Source: Fretibacterium fastidiosum
GTDB lineage: Bacteria > Synergistota > Synergistia > Synergistales > Aminobacteriaceae
Assembly (NCBI RefSeq): GCF_000210715.1
Contig: NC_021038.1
Span: forward strand, 2,007,089-2,061,480
Reading direction: 5' to 3'
DNA length: 54,392 nt
Shown: in pieces, positions 36,587-46,123 of the stretch
Position numbering within the stretch: position 1 is the first letter of the stretch
Layout of the letters: each line of letters starts with the position of its first letter
The notes under the pieces: model-generated
What the model saw: only the letters and a program-made list of their open reading frames with translations
Told to the model about the DNA's origin: nothing
The model's database searches: none
Program-made: the position numbers and the translations under genes

Positions 36587-36663
36587 CGTTGAAACAAACC
36601 CACGGTGCGCGAGGCGCAGAACGGATCAGGGAGGTATATTTTATTTTTAAGGAGGGCAACAGG

Positions 36664-37749
36664 TTGAGGTTTTTCAAGAGAAGCTTTTTGGCGTTTTTGT
36701 GCTGTGTGCTGTGCGCACAAGGCGCGCTGGGCGCCGAATTCGTCAAGTTTGTGGACGACAGCGGGCAGGAGGTGACGGTGCCGCGCTCGCCGGAACGTGT
36801 TCTCATCACGTCCATCATGCCTTTGACGAGCGTATACTGCCTCTATCGCGGCGGCATTACAGGATTGATCGGCATCTCAGACGGCACGAAGGTGGCGGCA
36901 CGGTACTCCTACCTTGCAAAGATGTTTCCGAAAATCCTCGATATTCCTTCCGACTTCATGAAGGGCGGCGAGGTGAACGTCGAGGAAGTCCTGAAGTTGA
37001 AGCCGGACGTCGTGTTCTACAACGCCTCGCGTCCGGAGGAGGGGGAAGCCTATCGCCGCATCGGGCTTCCTGCCGTGTGTTTCCGCACAGAAAAGTATCA
37101 TGGCGACCCGCTGGGGACGATTGCCGACTGGCTGGGCTACCTTGAAAGAGTATTTGGCGCAGGCGAGGGGACGGCGGGCGTTTCGGACTATGGCGCGAAG
37201 ACGCTTCAAATGGTGCGGGACCGTATCGCTGCGGCGGGCGACCTCAAGCGCCCCAAGGCGGTGATCTTTGCCGGGTACAGCGGAAACCAGCTCGTGGCGT
37301 CGGGCTCGAATCACTATTCCGAGTTCTATCTGCGCGAGTGCGGGGCGGTGAACGTAGCGGCGGAGATTGACGGCCAAAAGGGCGTCAACCTCGAGCAGAT
37401 CTACGAGTGGGACCCGGAGGTCATCCTGATCAACAATTTCTGCCCCTATGTGCCTGAGGATTTCTACGAGAACAAGATCGCCGGCTACGACTGGGGTCTG
37501 GTAAGCGCTGTGAAAAACAAGCGCGTCTACAAGTTTCCTCTGGGCATCTATCGCTGGTATCCGCCGTCCGGCGACACCCCGCTCTGCATCCTGTGGGTTG
37601 CCCAGCAACTGCATCCGGAGCTGTTCAGCGACGTCGATATCGCGAAGGAGCTTAGGGATTACTATCAAAAATTCTACCACTACGAGCCAACGGACGAGGA
37701 CATCGCCAAGATACTGCACCCCGGACGCGAGGCCGCCATCTTCAACTGA
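36664..37749 (+). CDS. btuF: Corrinoid/iron-complex ABC transporter, substrate-binding protein
   Basis: PF01497-type periplasmic binding protein, 361 residues. Signal peptide about 1-23 (ALGA), then VKFVDDSGQEVTVPRSPERVLI, the usual start of the family, GISDGTK, LKPDVVFYN, and YRWYPPSGDTPLCILWVAQQLHPELF near the end. TTG start at 36664 is fixed by AAGGAGG 7 nt upstream; the frame is open far upstream but overlaps the ATPase gene. Its stop overlaps btuC (TGATG). Siderophore or heme binders share this fold; corrinoid is preferred because of the riboswitch. Confidence 0.85.
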   Translation: MRFFKRSFLAFLCCVLCAQGALGAEFVKFVDDSGQEVTVPRSPERVLITSIMPLTSVYCLYRGGITGLIGISDGTKVAARYSYLAKMFPKILDIPSDFMKGGEVNVEEVLKLKPDVVFYNASRPEEGEAYRRIGLPAVCFRTEKYHGDPLGTIADWLGYLERVFGAGEGTAGVSDYGAKTLQMVRDRIAAAGDLKRPKAVIFAGYSGNQLVASGSNHYSEFYLRECGAVNVAAEIDGQKGVNLEQIYEWDPEVILINNFCPYVPEDFYENKIAGYDWGLVSAVKNKRVYKFPLGIYRWYPPSGDTPLCILWVAQQLHPELFSDVDIAKELRDYYQKFYHYEPTDEDIAKILHPGREAAIFN

Positions 37750-38759
37750 TGGCTCTATCTTCAAGGAGGGCAGGCGCGCTTTTGCTGCTTGCCCTTCCCC
37801 TCTTGACGGCGCTCCTTTGCCTCGGCGTGGGGCGGTACTCCATCAGCCTGTGGGAAACGCTCCACGTCCTCTTCTCGCCGCTGACGGGAGAAAAAGTCGA
37901 CGCCATGCAGTTTGCCGTAGTGTTCAAAATTCGCCTGCCCCGCATCCTGCAAGGCGCTTTATGCGGTGCGGCGCTGGCCGTGTCCGGCGCAGCCTTTCAG
38001 AGCTTGTTCAACAATCCGCTGGCGGTGCCGGACACGCTTGGCGTGGCCAGCGCCGCCTCCTGCGGGGCCGTGATCGCTCTGATGCTTCGCTGGAACCTGC
38101 TGGCCGTGCAGGCAACGGCTTTGGTCTTCGGCTTGATTGCCGTGCTCCTGACATGGTCGGCTGCAAGGATTCGGAAACAGAGTACGATCGTGATGATCGT
38201 GCTGGCCGGCATCGTCATCTCCGCGCTGTTCGACGGATTGCTCTCGCTCCTGAAATACGTCGCCGACCCCGAGGAAGCGCTGCCGACCATTACCTATTGG
38301 CTGATGGGCAGCCTGTCGGCCTCCAACTACTACACGCTGGCACTTGGAACGCCAATGATCGGCGCCGGGCTTTTGACTATATTTCTGCTGCGCTGGCGAC
38401 TCAACATCCTCTCCCTCGGCGAGGACGAAGCGCGTTCCATGGGCATTCACCTCAGAGCCATGCGCTTCACGGTCATCTTTGCGGCAGCGGCGATGACGGC
38501 TTCCTGCGTTTCGATGTGCGGCAAGATTGGATGGATCGGCCTCCTGATCCCGCACCTTGCGCGCATGGTCGGCGGCGGCAGCAATCAACGCATCATCCCC
38601 CTCAGCTTGTCGTTCGGCGCGGCGTTTACGCTCTGTGTTGACACGGTGGCGCGGAGCGTTACCGCCGCGGAGATACCGGTTTCGATCCTTACGGCCATCG
38701 TGGGCGCCCCCGTGTTCATCATGCTGTTGCGCTCCACGCAGGAGGGGGGCATGAAATGA
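37749..38759 (+). CDS. btuC: Corrinoid/iron-complex ABC transporter, permease
   Basis: FecCD/BtuC-type permease, 336 residues with about ten helices. Landmarks: FKIRLPRILQGALCGAALAVSGAAFQSLFNNPLAVPDTLGVASAASCGA (about 57-105), TYWLMGSLSASNY, and GKIGWIGLLIPHLARMVGG near 255-275. One-base overlap with btuF and 4-nt overlap with btuD show a tight operon. Confidence 0.92.
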   Translation: MALSSRRAGALLLLALPLLTALLCLGVGRYSISLWETLHVLFSPLTGEKVDAMQFAVVFKIRLPRILQGALCGAALAVSGAAFQSLFNNPLAVPDTLGVASAASCGAVIALMLRWNLLAVQATALVFGLIAVLLTWSAARIRKQSTIVMIVLAGIVISALFDGLLSLLKYVADPEEALPTITYWLMGSLSASNYYTLALGTPMIGAGLLTIFLLRWRLNILSLGEDEARSMGIHLRAMRFTVIFAAAAMTASCVSMCGKIGWIGLLIPHLARMVGGGSNQRIIPLSLSFGAAFTLCVDTVARSVTAAEIPVSILTAIVGAPVFIMLLRSTQEGGMK

Positions 38760-39544
38760 TCTTTGCGGTCGAGAATGGCTGTTTCGGCTATCGTCGCGGC
38801 TCGATCCTTCTGCGCGACATCTCGTTCCGCATAGAGCCGGGAGAGGTGCTGGCGGTTCTGGGGGCAAACGGGGCAGGAAAAACGACGATGCTTCGTTGCA
38901 TGATGGGTTTCCTGCCATGGCGTGACGGAGGGACCTTTATCGACGGGCGCGAACTCTCGTCGTTCAGCCCTCGACAGATATGGAGAAAGATGGCTTACGT
39001 ACCGCAGGCGAGAACGGCCGGCTTCCCCTATACGGCGTATGAAATGACGCTCCTTGGGCGAAGTGCACACCTTGGAGCGTTCAAGCAGCCGGGGCCTGAC
39101 GACGAGAGAATCGCCATGGAGTGCATGGAGGAAACGGGAATCCTGCACCTGAAGGATAAGCCCTGCAATCGCATGAGCGGCGGCGAACTGCAGATGGTCC
39201 TGATCGCTCGCGCGCTGACGACGCAGCCATCCCTGCTGGTGATGGACGAGCCGGAGTCCAACCTGGACTTTCACAACCAGCTGGTGATCCTGGAGGTCAT
39301 TCGTCACCTGGCGCACGACCTTGGCAAATCCGTTGTGCTGAACACGCATTTTCCCGACCACGCCATGCGGCTGGCGGACAAGGCCCTGCTCTTGAATCGG
39401 GATGGGACAAACCTCTATGGCCCAGTGAATGAAGTCGTGACGGTGGAGAACATCCGCAGCGCCTTTGGAGTGCACGCCGCGATCCGCAAGATCGAAGACA
39501 GGGGGGAACTTTACGACATCGTGGTTCCGCTGTCGCTTGCATAA
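38756..39544 (+). CDS. btuD: Corrinoid/iron-complex ABC transporter, ATPase
   Basis: FecE/BtuD-type ATPase, 262 residues: Walker A GANGAGKTT (about 40), VPQARTAGFPYTAYEMTLLGR, signature MSGGELQ (about 138), Walker B LLVMDEPESNLDFH (about 160), H-loop VLNTHFPDHAM. Last gene of the riboswitch-controlled run. No strong terminator follows; instead a repeat-rich gap begins. Confidence 0.92.
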   Translation: MIFAVENGCFGYRRGSILLRDISFRIEPGEVLAVLGANGAGKTTMLRCMMGFLPWRDGGTFIDGRELSSFSPRQIWRKMAYVPQARTAGFPYTAYEMTLLGRSAHLGAFKQPGPDDERIAMECMEETGILHLKDKPCNRMSGGELQMVLIARALTTQPSLLVMDEPESNLDFHNQLVILEVIRHLAHDLGKSVVLNTHFPDHAMRLADKALLLNRDGTNLYGPVNEVVTVENIRSAFGVHAAIRKIEDRGELYDIVVPLSLA

Positions 39545-39976: not shown

Positions 39977-40035
39977 CCTACACCCCTCCCCTTCGGGGAG
40001 CCTTCCGGCTGCCGTTCGCTGACGCTCACGGGCCG
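39977..40035 (+). repeat. Dispersed repeat, second family
   Basis: CCCCTTCGGGGAGCCTTCCG followed by GCTGCCGTTCGCTGACGC and TCACGGGCCGTCAG. A close copy is at 45296-45350, and an inverted, cut copy ends the window (54371-54392). It contains CCCC-TTC-GGGG hairpins and sits just beyond gene 3' ends. Confidence 0.75.
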
Positions 40036-40107
40036 TCAGTCCCCACAGCACTCGGCGGCCCGGCCCGTCAGGTCCTGAAACAGGGCGTTCATCACGGGAA
40101 CGGACTT
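40036..40107 (-). pseudogene. 3' remnant of a puuD-like (peptidase C26) gene
   Basis: On the minus strand this encodes KSVPVMNALFQDLTGRAAEC and CGD then a stop. The intact gene at 45347 ends ESVPVMNALFQDLTARAAAR and CGD. The 24 codons with stop are intact but have no upstream gene body, so this is a leftover of a duplication that also carried the adjacent repeat. Confidence 0.8.
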
Positions 40108-40115
40108 GATATCAT

Positions 40116-40140
40116 AAGGGGGCCGATATCGGCCCCCTTT
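40116..40140 (-). terminator. Terminator of the first Synerg-CTERM gene
   Basis: GGGGGCCGATATCGGCCCCC palindrome lies about 30 nt past the stop at 40168 and is followed by TTATGATAT on the minus strand. Near-identical structures end the other two paralogs. Confidence 0.7.
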
Positions 40141-40167
40141 CTCAAGCTACGTTCGATCCGCTATCGA

Positions 40168-41067
40168 TTATCGTTTTTTCATCCTCAAGGCCAGCGGAAG
40201 GAGCCCCAGCAGGGGCAGGAAGGCGTAGCCTGCGTTGCATCCGCCGCCACCGCCGCCACCACCACCAGAGGTTTTTCCGGACGTGATCGTGAAGTTGACG
40301 GCCTCGGAAAGGGTCCAGTTCTGGCCGTCCACGCCGGTAAACGTCACGTCCACCTTGGCCTTCACCGGAACGTCCTTGACGCTGTAGGCCGCGTCGAGCG
40401 CCTTGGCCTGGATATTGTTGGCGGCGCCGTCCCAGGTGAGGGAGAGCTTGCCCGCATCCAGTTTTGTGGGGTCGAAGTCGAACGTGACGCCGGCGACCTT
40501 GAGGTCCTTATCGACCGCTCCGACCGTGGGTTTGAGCGTCAGGGTCAGCGTATCCTCCGAACCCTTCGAGGTGTCGATGGCGAGCGCCGCCTTGCTCAGG
40601 TCCACGCTGACCGGATCCTTTGCGGTGACGTTGAAAGTGAACTTAGAGGATGTCCCCCCATGCTCCAGTTTCAGCACAAGCTTTCCCGTATCGCCCGGTT
40701 TCGTCCCAGCCGAGAACCTGAAGGACCCCTTGTCGTTGGGAACCCCCACCTGGTAGTCGAGGCCGGCAGAGGAATCCTTCTGTATTTCGTTAGGTTGGGC
40801 GATCAAGAAGCCAACCTCGCGCGTTCCCACCACATCGACCGACGCGCCGAGGAACATCTCGGAAAAGCCCTTTACCGTGAGGTCGGTCTCCCCTTCGACG
40901 CTTACATCCCCCGACTCCAAAGTCGAAGCCGCGTATTTGATGAAGAAGTCGGTCTTCAGAATAGGAGGGACAGCAGCCGAAGCCAGCTTACCCTCAAACG
41001 TGATGGCGGCCAGAGCCAACACGAACAGCACTGACGCAACCTTGAACTGTCTTAGACGCTTTGTCAT
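40168..41067 (-). CDS. Synerg-CTERM secreted protein, paralog A (short form)
   Basis: 299 residues. Signal peptide about 1-31 (RQFKVASVLFVLALAAITFEGKLASAA has more than 20 letters in the region, so only its span is given: residues 6-31). Then an N-terminal region (DLTVKGFSEMFLGASVDVV), a beta-rich, cohesin-like domain (about 145-250, with VAGVTFDFDPTKLDAGKLSL), a run of nine Gly, and the C-terminal signal: Cys277, NAGYAFLPLLGLLPLAL, RMKKR. The end is the Synerg-CTERM type, thought to be recognised by a sorting protease. The InlB-like repeat found in paralogs B and C is absent. ATG 41067; GTG four codons upstream is possible. Role unknown; a surface or matrix protein is plausible. Confidence 0.85.
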   Translation of the reverse strand: MTKRLRQFKVASVLFVLALAAITFEGKLASAAVPPILKTDFFIKYAASTLESGDVSVEGETDLTVKGFSEMFLGASVDVVGTREVGFLIAQPNEIQKDSSAGLDYQVGVPNDKGSFRFSAGTKPGDTGKLVLKLEHGGTSSKFTFNVTAKDPVSVDLSKAALAIDTSKGSEDTLTLTLKPTVGAVDKDLKVAGVTFDFDPTKLDAGKLSLTWDGAANNIQAKALDAAYSVKDVPVKAKVDVTFTGVDGQNWTLSEAVNFTITSGKTSGGGGGGGGGCNAGYAFLPLLGLLPLALRMKKR

Positions 41068-41248
41068 GACGAACGACACTTCCTTCCTTTTCGGTCTTCC
41101 CCAGGCCCCTCAAGTCCGGCGCCGTGACAACACCTCCCTCCGCAGCGGCGCCCGTCCCTCGTTTGGCCATTCCTCCGCCCGTTCCCGGGAGGCGGACACG
41201 AGAACCTCCCCCTGCCTCTCCATAAAGAACGAGAGACTGCATGCCGTC

Positions 41249-41306
41249 AGGATATCACGTTGCCTTACAAAAGAATGTTCCGTTCTTGCCCTTTTCCTGT
41301 TCCGTT
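41249..41306 (-). promoter_or_regulatory. AraC-type operator and promoter of paralog A
   Basis: On the minus strand AACGGAACA occurs at 41306-41298 and again at 41284-41276, 22 bp apart. The nearer copy abuts a poor -35 position (ATTCTT), followed by 16 bp and TATCCT (41254-41249). Two direct half-sites on one face next to a weak -35 is the usual layout of an AraC-activated promoter. Confidence 0.5.
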
Positions 41307-41356
41307 ATTGACTTTTTAGGAGGGAAATTCGGAGGTCCAGAACGGACTCGATGTCA

Positions 41357-41385
41357 TAAAGGGGGCCGGAGATCGGCCCCCGTTC
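41357..41385 (-). terminator. Terminator of the second Synerg-CTERM gene
   Basis: GGGGGCCG and CGGCCCCC (loop of about 5 nt) lie about 30 nt past the stop of paralog B; T-rich on the minus strand beyond (TTTATGAC). Confidence 0.65.
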
Positions 41386-41412
41386 TCAAGCTACAGTCGA
41401 ATCCGTTATCGA

Positions 41413-42540
41413 TTATCGTTTTTTCATCTTCAAGGCCAGCGGAAGGAGCCCCAGCAGAGGCAGGAAGGCGTAGCCCGTGCTACATCCACCACCGCCACCA
41501 CCGCCACTGCTACCGCCACCACCGCCAGAGGTTTTTTCGAACGTGGCCTCGATGGTGCCGTCGGATGTGACGTTCTTCATCGTATGGGTGGCCACCGCGC
41601 CAATAGAGGCCCCATTCACCTTGACGTCCTTGATCTTATAGTTTATGTCGGGTGAAATCGTGAAGGCCTGGTCCGCTCCGTAGGCCACCGTGACGGCCCC
41701 CTTCGGCGCGATGGTACCGCCAGGCCCTGCCGTAGCCGTCACCGTGACGGTCGCGGGATGTCCCGGCCCGGACGTGATCGTGAAGTTGACGTCCTCTGAA
41801 AGGGCCCAGTTCTGGCCGTCCTCGCCGGTAAACGTCATGCCCACCTCAGCCTTCACCGGGACGCCCGCGACGCTGTATACCGCGTCGAGCGCCTTGGCCT
41901 GGATCTTCTTGCCGGCGCCGTCCCAGGTGAGGGAGAGCTTGGCCGCGTCCAGTTTTGCGGGGTCGAAGTCGAACGTGACGCCGGCGACCTTGAGGTCCTT
42001 GTCGACCGCTCCGGCCTTGCCTTTGAGCGTCAGGGTCAGCGCGTCCTCCGAAGCCTTCGAGGTGTCGATGGCGAGTGCCGCCTTGTCCAGGTCCATACTG
42101 ACGGGGCTCTTCGCGGTGATCCCTTTCAGATCGAAAGAGGTCTTTTCTCCTGTCGTGGCCGAAGGGGACAGCAAAAGTCTGCCCGTTTCACCAGGTTTTA
42201 CGGTTTTGAGGAAGTGTGCCTTCCCTGTCCCCATCCCCAAGTTGACATACTCGATCTTCTCCTCGAGAAGGGCGTCCATGTGCAAAACCTTATCCCAAAC
42301 ACCGCTGTAATCATCCGAGGTTGTGAAATCCAGTTCCTCACCCAAGAACATCTCCTTGAGTGCCGGTACTTCGGTGGTCGTATCCTTGACGCTAGTCACA
42401 TACCCCTCCTGCCCTGCCGAAGATTTGTAGTGAAATCCGAACTCCGCTGCGTCCGCCGTCAGATCGGTCCCCAGGACGACCGCAGCCGCCAGAACGAGCA
42501 GAACCGACACGAATCCTCCTTGATTCACTCGCTTTGCCAT
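41413..42540 (-). CDS. Synerg-CTERM secreted protein, paralog B
   Basis: 375 residues. Signal peptide about 1-30 (SVLLVLAAAVVLGTDLTADA), a divergent N-terminal region, the beta-rich domain shared with A (VAGVTFDFDPAKLDAAKLSL), then an extra domain of about 75 residues (VTVTATAGPGGTIAPKGAV, VKVNGASIGAVATHTMKNV) that fits the divergent InlB B-repeat family. A Gly/Ser linker precedes the CTERM: Cys353, STGYAFLPLLGLLPLAL, KMKKR. The N-terminal region differs more from A and C than A and C do from each other. ATG 42540; role unknown. Confidence 0.85.
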   Translation of the reverse strand: MAKRVNQGGFVSVLLVLAAAVVLGTDLTADAAEFGFHYKSSAGQEGYVTSVKDTTTEVPALKEMFLGEELDFTTSDDYSGVWDKVLHMDALLEEKIEYVNLGMGTGKAHFLKTVKPGETGRLLLSPSATTGEKTSFDLKGITAKSPVSMDLDKAALAIDTSKASEDALTLTLKGKAGAVDKDLKVAGVTFDFDPAKLDAAKLSLTWDGAGKKIQAKALDAVYSVAGVPVKAEVGMTFTGEDGQNWALSEDVNFTITSGPGHPATVTVTATAGPGGTIAPKGAVTVAYGADQAFTISPDINYKIKDVKVNGASIGAVATHTMKNVTSDGTIEATFEKTSGGGGGSSGGGGGGGCSTGYAFLPLLGLLPLALKMKKR

Positions 42541-42709
42541 GATGCACCACACTTCCTTTCCTCTTTGATCTTTCGTCGCGCCTCAACCGCGGCACGGATG
42601 GTGAAGATGTCCGAACCCCATCCGCCTACTTTCCGATTCCCTCTCCTCCCGAGGGGGGCGCGGAACTCTCCGAAACGTCCCCTCCAGTACAGACCCCTAT
42701 GTTGCTGTC

Positions 42710-42767
42710 AGGATATCACGTTGCCTTGCAAAAGAATATTCCGTTCTTGCCCTTTTCCTATTCTGTT
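42710..42767 (-). promoter_or_regulatory. AraC-type operator and promoter of paralog B
   Basis: Minus-strand AACAGAATA (42767-42759) and AACGGAATA (42745-42737) are 22 bp apart, at the same place as in paralogs A and C. Both half-sites carry AATA instead of AACA, so they changed together. The likely -10 is TATCCT. Confidence 0.5.
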
Positions 42768-42815
42768 ATTGACTTTTAGGGAGAATCCGGAGGTCCGGAA
42801 CGGACTCGATGTCAT

Positions 42816-42840
42816 AAGGGGGCCGGAGATCGGCCCCCGT
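42816..42840 (-). terminator. Terminator of the third Synerg-CTERM gene
   Basis: GGGGGCCG and CGGCCCCC stem about 30 nt past the stop of paralog C; followed on the minus strand by TTATGAC. Confidence 0.65.
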
Positions 42841-42868
42841 TCCCAAGCTACGTTCGATCCGCTATCGA

Positions 42869-44092
42869 TTATCGTTTTTTCATCCTCGAGGCCAGCGGAA
42901 GGAGCCCCAGCAGAGGCAGGAAGGCATAGCCTGCGTTGCATCCGCCACCGCCGCTACCGCCACCGCCGCCGCCGCTACCGCCACCGCCGCCGCCGCTACC
43001 GCCACCGCCGCCGCCGCTACCACCACCGCCGCCGCCGCTACCGCCACCGCCGCCGCCACCAGAGGTTTTTTCGAACGTGGCCTCAATGGTGCCGTCGGAT
43101 GTGACGTTCTTCATCGTGTGGGTAGCCACCGCGCCGACGGAGGCGCCATTCACCTTGACGTCCTTGATCTTATAGTTCCTGTCGGGTGAAATCGTGAAGG
43201 CCTGATCCGCGCCGAAGGCTACCGTGACGGCACCCTTCGGCGCGATGGTGCCGCCGGCCCCTGCCGTGGCCGTCACCGTGACGGTCGCGGGGCGTCCCGG
43301 CCGGGACGTAATCGTGAAGTTGACGGCCTCGGAAAGGGTCCAGTTCTGGCCGTCCACGCCGGTAAACGTCACGTCCACCTTGGCCTTCACCGGAACGTCC
43401 TTGACGCTGTAGGCCGCATTGAGCGCCTTGGCCTGGATCTTGTTGGCGGCTCCATCCCAGGTGAGGGAGAGCTTGGCTGCGTCCAGTTTTGCGGGGTCGA
43501 AGTCGAACGCGACGCCGGCGACCTTGAGGTCCTTGAGAACCGCTCCGACCATAGGTTTGAGCGTCAGGGTCAGCGTGTCCTCTGAAGCCGTCGAGGTATC
43601 GATGGCGAGTGCCGCCTTGCTCTGATCTACGCTGACCGGATCCTTTGCGGTGATGTCGAAGGTGAACTTGGAGGATGTCCCCCCATTCTGCATTTTCAGC
43701 ACAAGCTTTCCCGTATCGCCCGGTTTCGTCCCGGCCGAGAACCCGAATGACCCCTCGTGGTTGGGAACCCCCACCCGGTAGTCGAGACCGGCAGAGGAAT
43801 CTTTCTGTATCTCGTTGGGCACCTTGAGGGGGAAGACGCCCTCCTGGCGCGTTCCCACCACATCGACCTTCGCACCGAGGAACATCTCGGAAAAGCCCTT
43901 TACCGTGAGGTCGGTCTCCCCTTCGACGCTTACATCCCCCGACTCCAAAGTCGAAGCCGCGTATTCGATGAAGAATTCGGTCTTCAGACCAGGAGGAGCA
44001 GCCGAAGCCGGCTTACCCTCAAACGTGATGGCGGCCAGAGCCAACACAAACAGTACTGACGCAGCCTTAAACTGCCTCAAACGCTTTGTCAT
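42869..44092 (-). CDS. Synerg-CTERM secreted protein, paralog C
   Basis: 407 residues. Signal peptide about 1-31, an N-terminal region close to paralog A (ASTLESGDVSVEGETDLTV), the shared cohesin-like domain (VAGVAFDFDPAKLDAAKLSL), the InlB-like repeat (TAGAGGTIAPKGAVTVAFG), then a long Gly-Ser linker of about 40 residues made of repeated SGGGGGG units, and the CTERM: Cys385, NAGYAFLPLLGLLPLAS, RMKKR. The A in PLAS departs from PLAL. ATG 44092; the frame extends upstream without a signal. Directly downstream of the AraC regulator gene. Role unknown. Confidence 0.85.
   Translation of the reverse strand: MTKRLRQFKAASVLFVLALAAITFEGKPASAAPPGLKTEFFIEYAASTLESGDVSVEGETDLTVKGFSEMFLGAKVDVVGTRQEGVFPLKVPNEIQKDSSAGLDYRVGVPNHEGSFGFSAGTKPGDTGKLVLKMQNGGTSSKFTFDITAKDPVSVDQSKAALAIDTSTASEDTLTLTLKPMVGAVLKDLKVAGVAFDFDPAKLDAAKLSLTWDGAANKIQAKALNAAYSVKDVPVKAKVDVTFTGVDGQNWTLSEAVNFTITSRPGRPATVTVTATAGAGGTIAPKGAVTVAFGADQAFTISPDRNYKIKDVKVNGASVGAVATHTMKNVTSDGTIEATFEKTSGGGGGGGSGGGGGGSGGGGGGSGGGGGGSGGGGGGSGGGGCNAGYAFLPLLGLLPLASRMKKR
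42946..43063 (-). repeat. 21-bp minisatellite encoding the Gly/Ser linker of paralog C
   Basis: About five copies of a 21-bp unit (CCGCCACCGCCGCCGCCGCT with one more base on plus), each adding seven residues (one Ser, six Gly). Units are nearly identical, with one CCACCACC variant. Unit number can change by slippage or recombination without breaking the frame. Confidence 0.85.
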
Positions 44093-44249
44093 GACGAACA
44101 ACACTTCCTTCCTTTTCGGTCTTCCCCAGGCTCCTTGAGCCCGGCACCGTGACAACGCCTCGCGTCCGTCCCTCGTTTGATCATTCCTCTGCTCATTCCC
44201 GGGAGCGTACACGAACCTCCCCGTAGATGTAGATAATGAGAGCCTGCGT

Positions 44250-44313
44250 GCAATTAGGTTATCACGCTGCCTTGAAAAAGAATGTTCCGTTTTTGTCCTT
44301 TTCCTGTTTCGTT
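44250..44313 (-). promoter_or_regulatory. AraC-type operator and promoter of paralog C
   Basis: Minus-strand AACGAAACA (44313-44305) and AACGGAACA (44291-44283), 22 bp apart, followed by CTTTTTCAAGGCAGCGTGATAACCT, in which TAACCT is the likely -10. The element lies directly downstream of the regulator gene. Confidence 0.5.
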
Positions 44314-44322
44314 ATTGACTTT

Positions 44323-45246
44323 TTAAGAGGAAAATCTGGAGGTCCGGGGCACTTCGTTGAGGGATTTTCGGCGGTATTCGGTGGGAGAGAGCCCGGTTTT
44401 CTGGCGGAACACGCGCGCGAAGTGGCTGGGGTTGGGGAATCCGCAGAGCTTCCCCACTTCGGCGATGGTGCACCGGGGGTCCTTCAGGATATCCATCGCG
44501 CGGTGGATGCGGATCAGCATCTGGAACTGGCGGGGCGTCATGCCCGTGTGAGCGCGGAACTTGCGCAGGGCAGTAAACTTGTTGACATGGACGATTTGGG
44601 AGACCTCCGAGAGAGGACAGGGGTCACTGCGTTCGCTCAGGTGCTCGACGGCCCGGTCCAGCTCCGCGTCGCTTGGGACGCGCTGTTCCGTGGCCGCCGC
44701 GGAGAAACGGAGCCTGCGAATGAGGCAGACGGCAAGCTGGATGACGATACAGTCGACCATCACTCCGGACCCGATGCCTGGGCTGCCCCTTCTGCCCCCC
44801 CCGTACTCGATGAAGAATGCGCGCATCAGGGCTTTGAGCTCGGGGTCGTAGGGGATCAGGTCGTTCTCGAAAACCGTGTCGGGACTGCCGCGCAGGGTAC
44901 GGCACATCTTTTGGAAGAAGGCATAGCGGAAGTAGAGGCTGATGAAGGAGACGTTGGGGATCGGCTCGGTCACCGCGTGGGGCTGACTGCCGTTGACGGG
45001 GTAGATGGAGCCGGCTGGGACGAAGATGGGGTGTCCATCCCTCGTCCCGCCCCGAACCGGGGAGAGGGCGATGAAGAACTGCACGCTCTCGTGCCGGTAG
45101 CTGTTGGGCAGCATACAGACCGGCCTGCGGCTCACGATCACGGTCAGGTTGTTCGTCCTGAAGAACTCCAGGTAGGGGTTGTTTCCGATGAACTCGCGGA
45201 ACGGCACCCAGGGGCGGGTGACCTTCTCGGAGAGGTTGTCCTTCAT
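44323..45246 (-). CDS. AraC-family transcriptional regulator
   Basis: 307 residues. The N-terminal two-thirds is a cupin-like sensor region (about 1-190; FVPAGSIYPVNGSQPHAV is typical of the AraC ligand-binding fold). The C-terminal third has two helix-turn-helix motifs: LSEVSQIVHVNKFTALRKF (about 215-235) and IAEVGKLCGFPNPSHFARVF (about 265-285), followed by GLSPTEYRR, the family signature. ATG 45246 is preceded by GGAGG at 9 nt. It is the only regulator near the three Synerg-CTERM genes, all of which carry a matching direct-repeat motif, so it is the likely activator. Inducer unknown. Confidence 0.9.
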   Translation of the reverse strand: MKDNLSEKVTRPWVPFREFIGNNPYLEFFRTNNLTVIVSRRPVCMLPNSYRHESVQFFIALSPVRGGTRDGHPIFVPAGSIYPVNGSQPHAVTEPIPNVSFISLYFRYAFFQKMCRTLRGSPDTVFENDLIPYDPELKALMRAFFIEYGGGRRGSPGIGSGVMVDCIVIQLAVCLIRRLRFSAAATEQRVPSDAELDRAVEHLSERSDPCPLSEVSQIVHVNKFTALRKFRAHTGMTPRQFQMLIRIHRAMDILKDPRCTIAEVGKLCGFPNPSHFARVFRQKTGLSPTEYRRKSLNEVPRTSRFSS

Positions 45247-45295
45247 CCCGTTATCCCTCCTCGACACAAGCCCTCAAGGCCGGCGAGATCGTCAG

Positions 45296-45350
45296 TCCCC
45301 CCTCCGGGGAGCCTTCCGGCTGCCGTTCGCCCTTGCTCACGGGCTGTCAG
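45296..45350 (+). repeat. Dispersed repeat, second family (copy)
   Basis: CCCCCCTCCGGGGAGCCTTCC, GGCTGCCGTTCGCCCTTGC and TCACGGGCTGTCAG match the element at 39977-40035, overlapping the 3' end of the puuD-like gene by a few bases. Confidence 0.75.
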
Positions 45351-46087
45351 TCACCACAACGGGCTGCGGCACGGGCTGTCAGGTCCTGAAACAGGGCGTT
45401 CATCACGGGAACGGACTCGATCAGGTCCTCCGGATGCCACTGGGTGGCGACGATCAGCCCGTCGGCGCTCTCAATGGCCTCCACGATTCCGTCCTCCGCC
45501 TGAGCGGAGACGGCCAGGCCCTTTCCCAACGCCTTGACGGACTGGTGGTGCAGGCTGTTCACCGGCACAGCCTCCCGCCCCAGAAGTCGGGCCAGCCGGG
45601 TGCCCGGCACAACGCACGCCGTCTGCGTGACGACGTGGCGCTTCTCCGTCTGAACGTGCGTCAGGTGGTCCTCCCCCCGCTCCCCGATGTCCTGGTACAG
45701 GCTGCCGCCGCAGGCGACGTTCAAAAGTTGGGCCCCCCGGCAGATGCCAAGCATGGGGACCTGCCGTTCCATGGCGTATCGCGCAGCGTGAAACCAACAT
45801 TCGTCGAGGGCGCGATCGACCTCCCCCAGCTTCTCGTGCGGCGCCTCCCCGTAGTAGGCGGGGTCCACGTCGTCCCCGCCGGGGAACAGCAGCCCGTCGC
45901 ACGCCTCAAGAAGGGGGTCCATCAGGCTCAGGTCGCTGACGAAGGGCAGGATGACGGGGACGCCGCCGTTGTTCGCCACGGAGCGGACGCAGGTGTCGTT
46001 CGTGAAGCTGCGGCGCATGACGCTCCCGGAGGTGGAAGACGTTGTCACCAGGATGTTGCCCAGAATTCCGATAATCGGCTTTGCCAT
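45347..46087 (-). CDS. Peptidase C26 / gamma-glutamyl-GABA hydrolase-like protein (PuuD type)
   Basis: Class I glutamine amidotransferase-fold hydrolase, 246 residues. The catalytic triad is visible: Cys116 in MLGICRGAQ, His218 and Glu220 in TQWHPED. The DGLLFPGGDDVDP loop and NSLHHQSVK segment are PuuD-like. PuuD hydrolyses gamma-glutamyl-GABA in putrescine breakdown; other members act on different gamma-glutamyl amides. No other polyamine gene is nearby, so the substrate is open. ATG 46087 is preceded by GGAGG at 8 nt. The last 24 codons were copied to 40036-40107. Confidence 0.85.
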   Translation of the reverse strand: MAKPIIGILGNILVTTSSTSGSVMRRSFTNDTCVRSVANNGGVPVILPFVSDLSLMDPLLEACDGLLFPGGDDVDPAYYGEAPHEKLGEVDRALDECWFHAARYAMERQVPMLGICRGAQLLNVACGGSLYQDIGERGEDHLTHVQTEKRHVVTQTACVVPGTRLARLLGREAVPVNSLHHQSVKALGKGLAVSAQAEDGIVEAIESADGLIVATQWHPEDLIESVPVMNALFQDLTARAAARCGD

Positions 46088-46123
46088 GTTCAAGTCCTCC
46101 TCGCCCGCGATGGGCCCCGCACC

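What the first reader, a model, noticed from the sequence alone, without database searches (positions are those of the whole stretch)
40098..45246. AraC-linked tandem array of three Synerg-CTERM secreted proteins
Seen directly: three adjacent minus-strand paralogs, each with a signal peptide, a shared beta-rich domain, a Gly-rich linker, a single Cys, a hydrophobic stretch and a RMKKR/KMKKR tail. Two of them share an extra InlB-like repeat. An AraC-family gene lies directly upstream. Family knowledge: such tails are sorting signals processed by membrane proteases (MYXO-CTERM, GlyGly-CTERM and Synerg-CTERM types). Inference: an inducible surface or matrix locus, perhaps adhesion or substrate capture, that has expanded by duplication.
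Basis: partly seen in the sequence, partly recalled or inferred. Interest (0 to 1): 0.78.

Follow-up and report, generated by a model that had tools for sequence, protein, structure and literature searches.

The report
AraC-controlled array of anchored surface proteins
A Synergistota bacterium (probably the gum-disease-associated Fretibacterium fastidiosum) carries three neighbouring genes for secreted, membrane-sorted surface proteins, each behind its own copy of a predicted AraC-type regulator binding site; the same switch also precedes unrelated surface-protein genes in a relative, so it looks like a small inducible surface-protein regulon that spreads by copying its promoter.

Summary
Three minus-strand paralogs (g1, g2, g3; 299, 375, 407 aa) have a signal peptide, a beta-rich region, a Gly-rich linker and a Synerg-CTERM-like tail, behind a co-directional AraC gene. 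The genome has 20 Synerg-CTERM tails and one CPBP protease, the curated Synerg-CTERM enzyme MrtS, so the sorting reading is sound.

New here. (1) Each gene has its own operator-promoter: two 15-bp direct half-sites at 22-bp spacing, then an extended -10. (2) AraC and target family occur together in only one other genome of those searched (G012, another genus), adjacent, with the same operator. (3) Blind searches found two more operators in G012; both follow degraded araC 3' ends and precede Synerg-CTERM genes of an unrelated family. One has lost a half-site and is a pseudogene. (4) The araC tail, operator, gene and terminator were repeated in tandem; a duplicated Peptidase_C26 3' end flanks the locus. 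(5) Heads of g1/g3 and g2 differ (about 25% identity) on conserved cores (78-90%).

Best reading: an AraC-activated regulon of MrtS-anchored binding proteins, expanding by copying its promoter module. Ligand, inducer and surface location are untested. A new variant of a known kind (compare EbrB-Esp).

The parts
40168..41067 (-). g1: 299-aa secreted protein: signal peptide, head type A, core, short Gly linker, CNAGYAFLPLLGLLPLALRMKKR tail (no InlB-like repeat)
   Evidence: TIGR04564 over cut-off
41413..42540 (-). g2: 375-aa paralog with head type B (closest to the G012 ortholog), core, InlB-like repeat, Gly linker, tail
42869..44092 (-). g3: 407-aa paralog with head type A, core, InlB-like repeat, long Gly/Ser linker, tail
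44323..45267 (-). AraC-family regulator (GTG start at 45267 or ATG at 45246); full-length ortholog (74-75% identity) only in G012
44249..44324 (-). operator-promoter of g3: half-sites 44305-44319 and 44283-44297, extended -10 at 44256-44266
42703..42778 (-). operator-promoter of g2: half-sites 42759-42773 and 42737-42751, extended -10 at 42710-42720
41242..41317 (-). operator-promoter of g1: half-sites 41298-41312 and 41276-41290, extended -10 at 41249-41259
42816..42838 (-). GC-rich terminator-like hairpin after g3
   Evidence: (I3), fold; T-run is short, so the consensus scan does not list it
41359..41381 (-). terminator-like hairpin after g2
40118..40140 (-). terminator-like hairpin after g1
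41326..41364 (-). duplication junction g2/g1: TCGAGTCCGTTC (start of C26-tail copy) fused to araC 3' end
   Evidence: (D11)
42784..42822 (-). duplication junction g3/g2, same structure
   Evidence: (D11)
42942..43057 (-). 21-bp (7-codon, in-frame) tandem repeat, 5.5 copies: Gly/Ser stalk of g3
43070..43312 (-). InlB-like repeat of g3 (PF18998, 21.9 bits, cut-off 23.6)
41536..41778 (-). InlB-like repeat of g2 (PF18998, 19.8 bits, cut-off 23.6)
45299..45421 (-). 3' end of the Peptidase_C26 gene plus a dispersed ~55-bp repeat: right-hand flanking direct repeat
   Evidence: (D9)
39988..40110 (-). left-hand copy of the same stretch (87% identical), directly after g1: the locus is bracketed
   Evidence: (D9)

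Best explanation
A small AraC-activated regulon of membrane-sorted surface proteins, amplified by copying its regulated promoter. The AraC protein, on sensing an unknown cue, binds two direct half-sites (consensus G-N-C-A-A-N-A-A-C-G-G-A-A-C-A, 22 bp apart) that run into a weak -35, and activates an extended -10 promoter in front of each gene separately. Each product goes through Sec, is held in the inner membrane by its C-terminal tail, is cleaved by MrtS next to the conserved Cys (probably after lipidation, as proposed for MYXO-CTERM), and is exposed on a flexible Gly-rich stalk as a beta-rich binding protein. The variable N-terminal heads and stalk lengths give three versions of one adhesin or capture protein under one switch. 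Tandem and dispersed copies arose because the duplicated unit begins in the 3' end of araC and carries the operator with it. Shown by sequence: anatomy, paralogy, presence of MrtS, conserved operator-like sites, araC remnants, junctions, mosaic heads. Inferred: AraC binding and activation, cue, processing, surface exposure, ligand binding.
For: Own operator-like site for every copy and for the G012 ortholog. Half-sites are 80-87% conserved between the two genera, while the gap before the -10 is 27% (chance level) and the extended -10 is 85%: a phylogenetic footprint. The direct repeat is not explained by composition (0-16 of 3000 shuffles per site; 0 of 2000 column shuffles), and TRF finds it independently. 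Over 151 genomes the operator profile scores E<1e-9 only in the two genomes that have this AraC: 3 sites each. All six lie in front of Synerg-CTERM genes (one a pseudogene); two of these were found blind and front an unrelated protein family. AraC and target family co-occur, adjacent, in exactly the same two genomes. MrtS at 254 bits vs cut-off 130, the only CPBP found in the genome. Secretins are present, as the type II route proposed for MYXO-CTERM would need (PMC11980579). araC 3' remnants precede both extra G012 sites (blastn E 2e-43 and 1e-13) and the window's g1/g2 operators. Head/core mosaic; 21-bp in-frame stalk repeat.
Against: Only two genomes carry the system, so co-occurrence is n=2, and the extra operators descend from copies of the same locus, so they are not independent inventions. 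No expression, binding or localisation data. AlphaFold models were poor (mean pLDDT 57 and 42) apart from the g2 head (about 80), and Foldseek gave no significant match, so 'adhesin' is unproven. The g2 tail is a borderline Synerg-CTERM match. Activation rather than repression is inferred from position only. If the source is the SGP1 reference assembly, it is about 10% N (PMC11984142), so operators in gaps could be missed.
Confidence: 0.66

Rival explanations
1. Constitutive surface proteins with an AraC neighbour that regulates something else; the conserved 76-bp block is simply the promoter (or another factor's site) copied along with the gene.
For: No regulatory data; adjacency alone is weak. 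The block includes an extended -10, so part of its conservation needs no regulator.
Against: Conservation is concentrated in two 15-bp direct repeats 22 bp apart plus the -10, with a non-conserved gap, which is AraC/XylS-like operator geometry (family knowledge). The block occurs only in the two genomes with this AraC.
Confidence: 0.17
2. Antigenic or phase-variable array: the copies mainly exist to generate variants by gene conversion (conserved core and tail, exchangeable heads, slippage-prone stalk), and regulation is secondary. This is partly compatible with the best explanation.
For: Two head types with a fairly sharp boundary near residue 145, homogenised C-terminal halves, 21-bp in-frame linker repeats, 5' leader of g2 differing together with its head.
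Against: Each copy looks intact with its own promoter; no silent cassettes, recombinase or inversion seen; only one genome has the array; head B is shared with G012, so the split may be old divergence and not active exchange.
Confidence: 0.25
3. Mobile cassette: AraC plus gene is a horizontally moving or integrating unit that inserted at the 3' end of the Peptidase_C26 gene.
For: 123-bp direct repeat of the C26 3' end brackets the locus; patchy distribution (2 of 83 family genomes); different neighbourhood in G012; C26 on another contig there.
Against: No integrase or transposase recognised inside the bracket; half of the bracketing repeat is a dispersed genomic repeat (45 matches in the genome); local tandem duplication followed by deletion explains it equally; no empty site found in the three relatives examined.
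Confidence: 0.12

Closest known systems
Synerg-CTERM / MrtS protein sorting (TIGR04564 / NF040589)
   Same: Cys-containing short motif, hydrophobic helix, basic tail on secreted proteins; MrtS present as the only CPBP found in the genome.
   Different: Processing not tested; tails here are Gly-rich and Lys-rich and score at or below the curated cut-off.
MYXO-CTERM / myxosortase MrtX (PMC11980579)
   Same: Tripartite Cys-containing tail, CPBP intramembrane protease, proposed lipidation and type II export to the surface.
   Different: Different protease family and phylum; no experiment on the Synerg version in the papers I could read.
EbrB-Esp (Enterococcus faecium, PMC3669262) and Spy1337-R28 (Streptococcus pyogenes, PMC7098570)
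   Same: AraC-type regulator beside, and controlling, an anchored surface protein.
   Different: Gram-positive surface proteins beside their regulator (EbrB: one main target reported); here several targets, each with its own two-half-site operator, plus dispersed targets behind araC remnants in G012.
AraC/XylS operators (araI1-I2 type; family knowledge)
   Same: Two direct half-sites about two helical turns apart, reaching the -35.
   Different: Different sequence (GNCAANAACGGAACA, 22-bp spacing); binding not tested.
Divergent InlB B-repeat (PF18998)
   Same: One ~70-aa copy in g2, g3 and the G012 ortholog.
   Different: Below the curated cut-off; absent from g1; single copy.

Membership tests
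Synerg-CTERM sorted proteins | C-terminal signature with Cys, hydrophobic stretch, basic cluster (TIGR04564) | tested here: inconclusive
   g1 23.0 bits over the 22.5 cut-off but 18.3 in hmmscan; g2, g3 not reported. Local profile: g1, g3, G012 0/200 shuffles, g2 2/200.
Synerg-CTERM sorted proteins | N-terminal signal peptide | tested here: inconclusive
   n-, h- and c-regions with A-x-A visible in all three; no predictor available.
Synerg-CTERM sorted proteins | Cognate protease MrtS in the same genome | tested here: met
   NF040589, 253.7 bits vs cut-off 130; only CPBP found.
Synerg-CTERM sorted proteins | Cleavage at or near the Cys and surface location | not testable with these tools
   needs proteomics.
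AraC/XylS regulators | C-terminal double HTH (HTH_18) | tested here: met
   PF12833 E=2.3e-20.
AraC/XylS regulators | Direct-repeat half-sites about two turns apart at the target promoter | tested here: met
   22-bp spacing, all five intact sites, conserved across genera. Met as sequence, not as binding.
AraC/XylS regulators | Ligand-sensing N-terminal domain | tested here: inconclusive
   N-terminal ~200 aa highly conserved with G012 but no Pfam domain found there.
YSIRK surface-antigen regulator (TIGR04094) | Equivalog score over 200 bits | tested here: not met
   31.7 bits, HTH part only: may work like it, not a member.
InlB B-repeat proteins (PF18998) | PF18998 over its gathering score | tested here: not met
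   19.8-21.9 bits vs 23.6.

The most novel reading that the evidence does not exclude
The araC 3' end, operator, promoter and leader form a portable 'regulon-capture' module: by duplicating it, the bacterium places new MrtS-sorted surface proteins, related or not, under one AraC switch, while heads and stalks diversify. The araC remnants left in front of the captured genes are the fossil record of this, and loss of one 22-bp half-site goes with decay of the captured gene (G012 C31).
Probability: 0.4. Interest if true: 0.62.

Novelty: new variant of a known kind. Interest (0 to 1): 0.5.

Why it matters
I found no described regulator or operator for Synerg-CTERM surface proteins (only a limited open library could be searched). 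This gives a precise testable operator, its regulator and up to six targets in two genera, in what is probably a periodontitis-associated bacterium (F. fastidiosum). It also shows a readable case of regulon growth by copying a promoter together with the tail of its own regulator gene, and a variable-head, conserved-anchor surface array that strain sequencing can check directly.

Tried and rejected
PDB sequence search of the family profile: essentially only Gly/Ser linkers of scFv antibodies, an artefact of the linker. AlphaFold of g3 and g2: low confidence beyond the g2 head; Foldseek against PDB had no hit at E<=0.001 (best: filamin Ig-like, 0.016), so no fold is claimed. The CBM60 hit is below cut-off and dropped. 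First tail-profile attempts failed for technical reasons or were dominated by bias correction; redone without it. Genome-contig scans: no relative of the target family, and only HTH-level matches to the AraC; those scans are pattern-based and may miss relatives. Empty-site search at C26: flanks differ in the three relatives examined, no conclusion. The sigma-70 consensus scan found no minus-strand promoter: the -35 is weak, as expected for an activator-dependent promoter, though absence of a consensus is not proof. Metatranscriptome literature (PMC11041396) names Fretibacterium pilin and S-layer-homology proteins in periodontitis, not these genes.
Full report
What is there. The window is bases 2007089-2061480 of a 2,728,333-bp single-contig genome. 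Its size and 89% completeness fit the gapped reference assembly of Fretibacterium fastidiosum SGP1 (the length match is my recollection of that record; PMC11984142, says that assembly has about 10% Ns); the window itself has no N. On the minus strand, downstream of a Peptidase_C26 gene (45347-46093) and an AraC-family gene (44323-45267), lie three paralogs: g3 (42869-44092), g2 (41413-42540), g1 (40168-41067). Each has a signal-peptide-like start, an N-terminal head, a core of about 120 residues, a Gly-rich linker and a tail of Cys, hydrophobic stretch and RMKKR/KMKKR. g2 and g3 carry one extra PF18998-like repeat just below cut-off.

The sorting system. The genome holds 20 TIGR04564 matches. 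The only PF02517 (CPBP) protein found is, by NCBIfam, the equivalog MrtS, 'Synerg-CTERM system glutamic-type intramembrane protease' (253.7 bits, cut-off 130). Two secretins exist. By analogy with MYXO-CTERM and MrtX, where cleavage depends on the Cys and the type II system is thought to carry the protein outward (PMC11980579), the likely fate is a surface anchor. That is inference for this organism. The array tails are weaker matches than most, g2 being borderline.

The operator. Aligning the upstream regions of g1, g2, g3 and the single ortholog in G012 shows a conserved block. It consists of two direct half-sites, GTCAATAACGGAACA and GGCAAGAACGGAACA in g1, 22 bp apart, then a gap, then CGTGATAACCT/CGTGATATCCT (extended -10). 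Between the genera the half-sites are 87% and 80% identical, the extended -10 85%, and the 16-bp gap between half-site 2 and the -10 only 27%. TRF reports the 22-bp repeat independently. Shuffling rarely or never reproduces it (0-16/3000 per site; 0/2000 for column shuffles). This is AraC/XylS-type operator geometry with the promoter-proximal half-site running into the -35 (family knowledge; binding untested). A GC-rich hairpin follows each gene, so each copy looks like its own transcription unit; its T-run is short and the consensus scan did not call it.

Distribution. A profile of head plus core finds the family in 2 of 83 genomes of the bacterial family: here (3 copies) and G012 (1 copy). 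The full-length AraC occurs in the same two of 121 genomes (75% identity); nearly all other matches are confined to the HTH part. In G012 the AraC gene lies directly upstream of the single ortholog, but in another neighbourhood. So AraC plus target is a unit; the three-gene array is seen only here.

Blind test of the regulon. A pattern search for the half-site pair in both genomes and then a 76-column profile over 151 genomes returned strong matches (E<1e-9) only in these two: three here, three in G012. The two additional G012 sites were not known beforehand; C16 came from the pattern search and was then included in the profile, C31 came from the profile alone. C16:49615-49689 lies some 120 bp upstream of a 575-aa Synerg-CTERM protein unrelated to g1-g3. 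C31:2110-2162 lies upstream of a relative of that protein with two in-frame stops, and has lost one 22-bp half-site. Both sites are preceded by degraded copies of the last ~210 bp of araC (71-78% identity over the matched pieces, E 2e-43 and 1e-13). In the window, g1 and g2 are likewise preceded by the last ~25 bp of araC. So the duplicating unit starts inside araC and carries the operator along, in tandem here and dispersed in G012. Caveat: these sites share descent, so the association with surface genes is not six independent events.

How the array formed. Each intergenic junction reads hairpin, then TCGAGTCCGTTC, then the araC 3' end. TCGAGTCCGTTC is the beginning of a duplicated piece of the C26 gene's 3' end, whose full 123-bp copy follows g1 (39988-40110, 87% identical to 45299-45421). 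Hence a copy of the C26 tail already followed the ancestral gene before tandem duplication. The rest of the bracket is a dispersed ~55-bp genomic repeat (45 matches to the query). Insertion versus duplication-plus-deletion cannot be decided: no empty site was found.

Mosaic heads. g1 and g3 share head type A (84% identity); g2 has type B, which is closer to G012 (54%) than to g1/g3 (25-26%). The cores of the three are 78-90% identical, more alike than to G012 (61-70%). The change is fairly sharp near residue 145, and the g2 leader differs as well. The g3 stalk holds a 21-bp in-frame repeat of 5.5 copies; g1 and g2 have much shorter stalks. This fits variable binding heads on a conserved anchor. 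Old divergence with later homogenisation of the C-terminal half is equally possible.

Function. No fold or ligand was found. AraC-controlled anchored surface proteins are known: EbrB-Esp (PMC3669262) and Spy1337-R28 (PMC7098570). That analogy, plus stalk, repeat and anchor, makes an inducible adhesin or capture protein the most likely role. Confidence in the regulon-of-anchored-proteins reading is about two in three; in 'adhesin' specifically, lower.

Verdict. Observation confirmed, interpretation partly supported and extended. New variant of a known kind; interest 0.5.

Noticed in passing
39988-40110 and 45299-45421 (the part downstream of the C26 stop): A ~55-bp repeat family is dispersed through the genome (about 45 matches); nature and function unknown.
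   Followed up: partly
G000:C1:1325768-1349917 (loci L058, L059): A 24-kb minus-strand cluster with six further Synerg-CTERM genes, including two with near-identical tails (L001, L002): a second, larger surface-protein cluster without this operator.
   Followed up: partly
L159:1-2300 (G012:C31): Pseudogene copy of a Synerg-CTERM gene (two in-frame stops) behind an operator reduced to one half-site and an araC 3' remnant.
   Followed up: yes
L138:3767-5494 (G012:C16): 575-aa Synerg-CTERM protein under the same operator, distantly similar to the L010, L015 and L011 proteins of the window's genome.
   Followed up: partly
36600-39544 (+): Substrate-binding protein, permease and ATPase that look like an iron/siderophore-type ABC transporter, convergent with the array (from the translations; not searched).
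   Followed up: no
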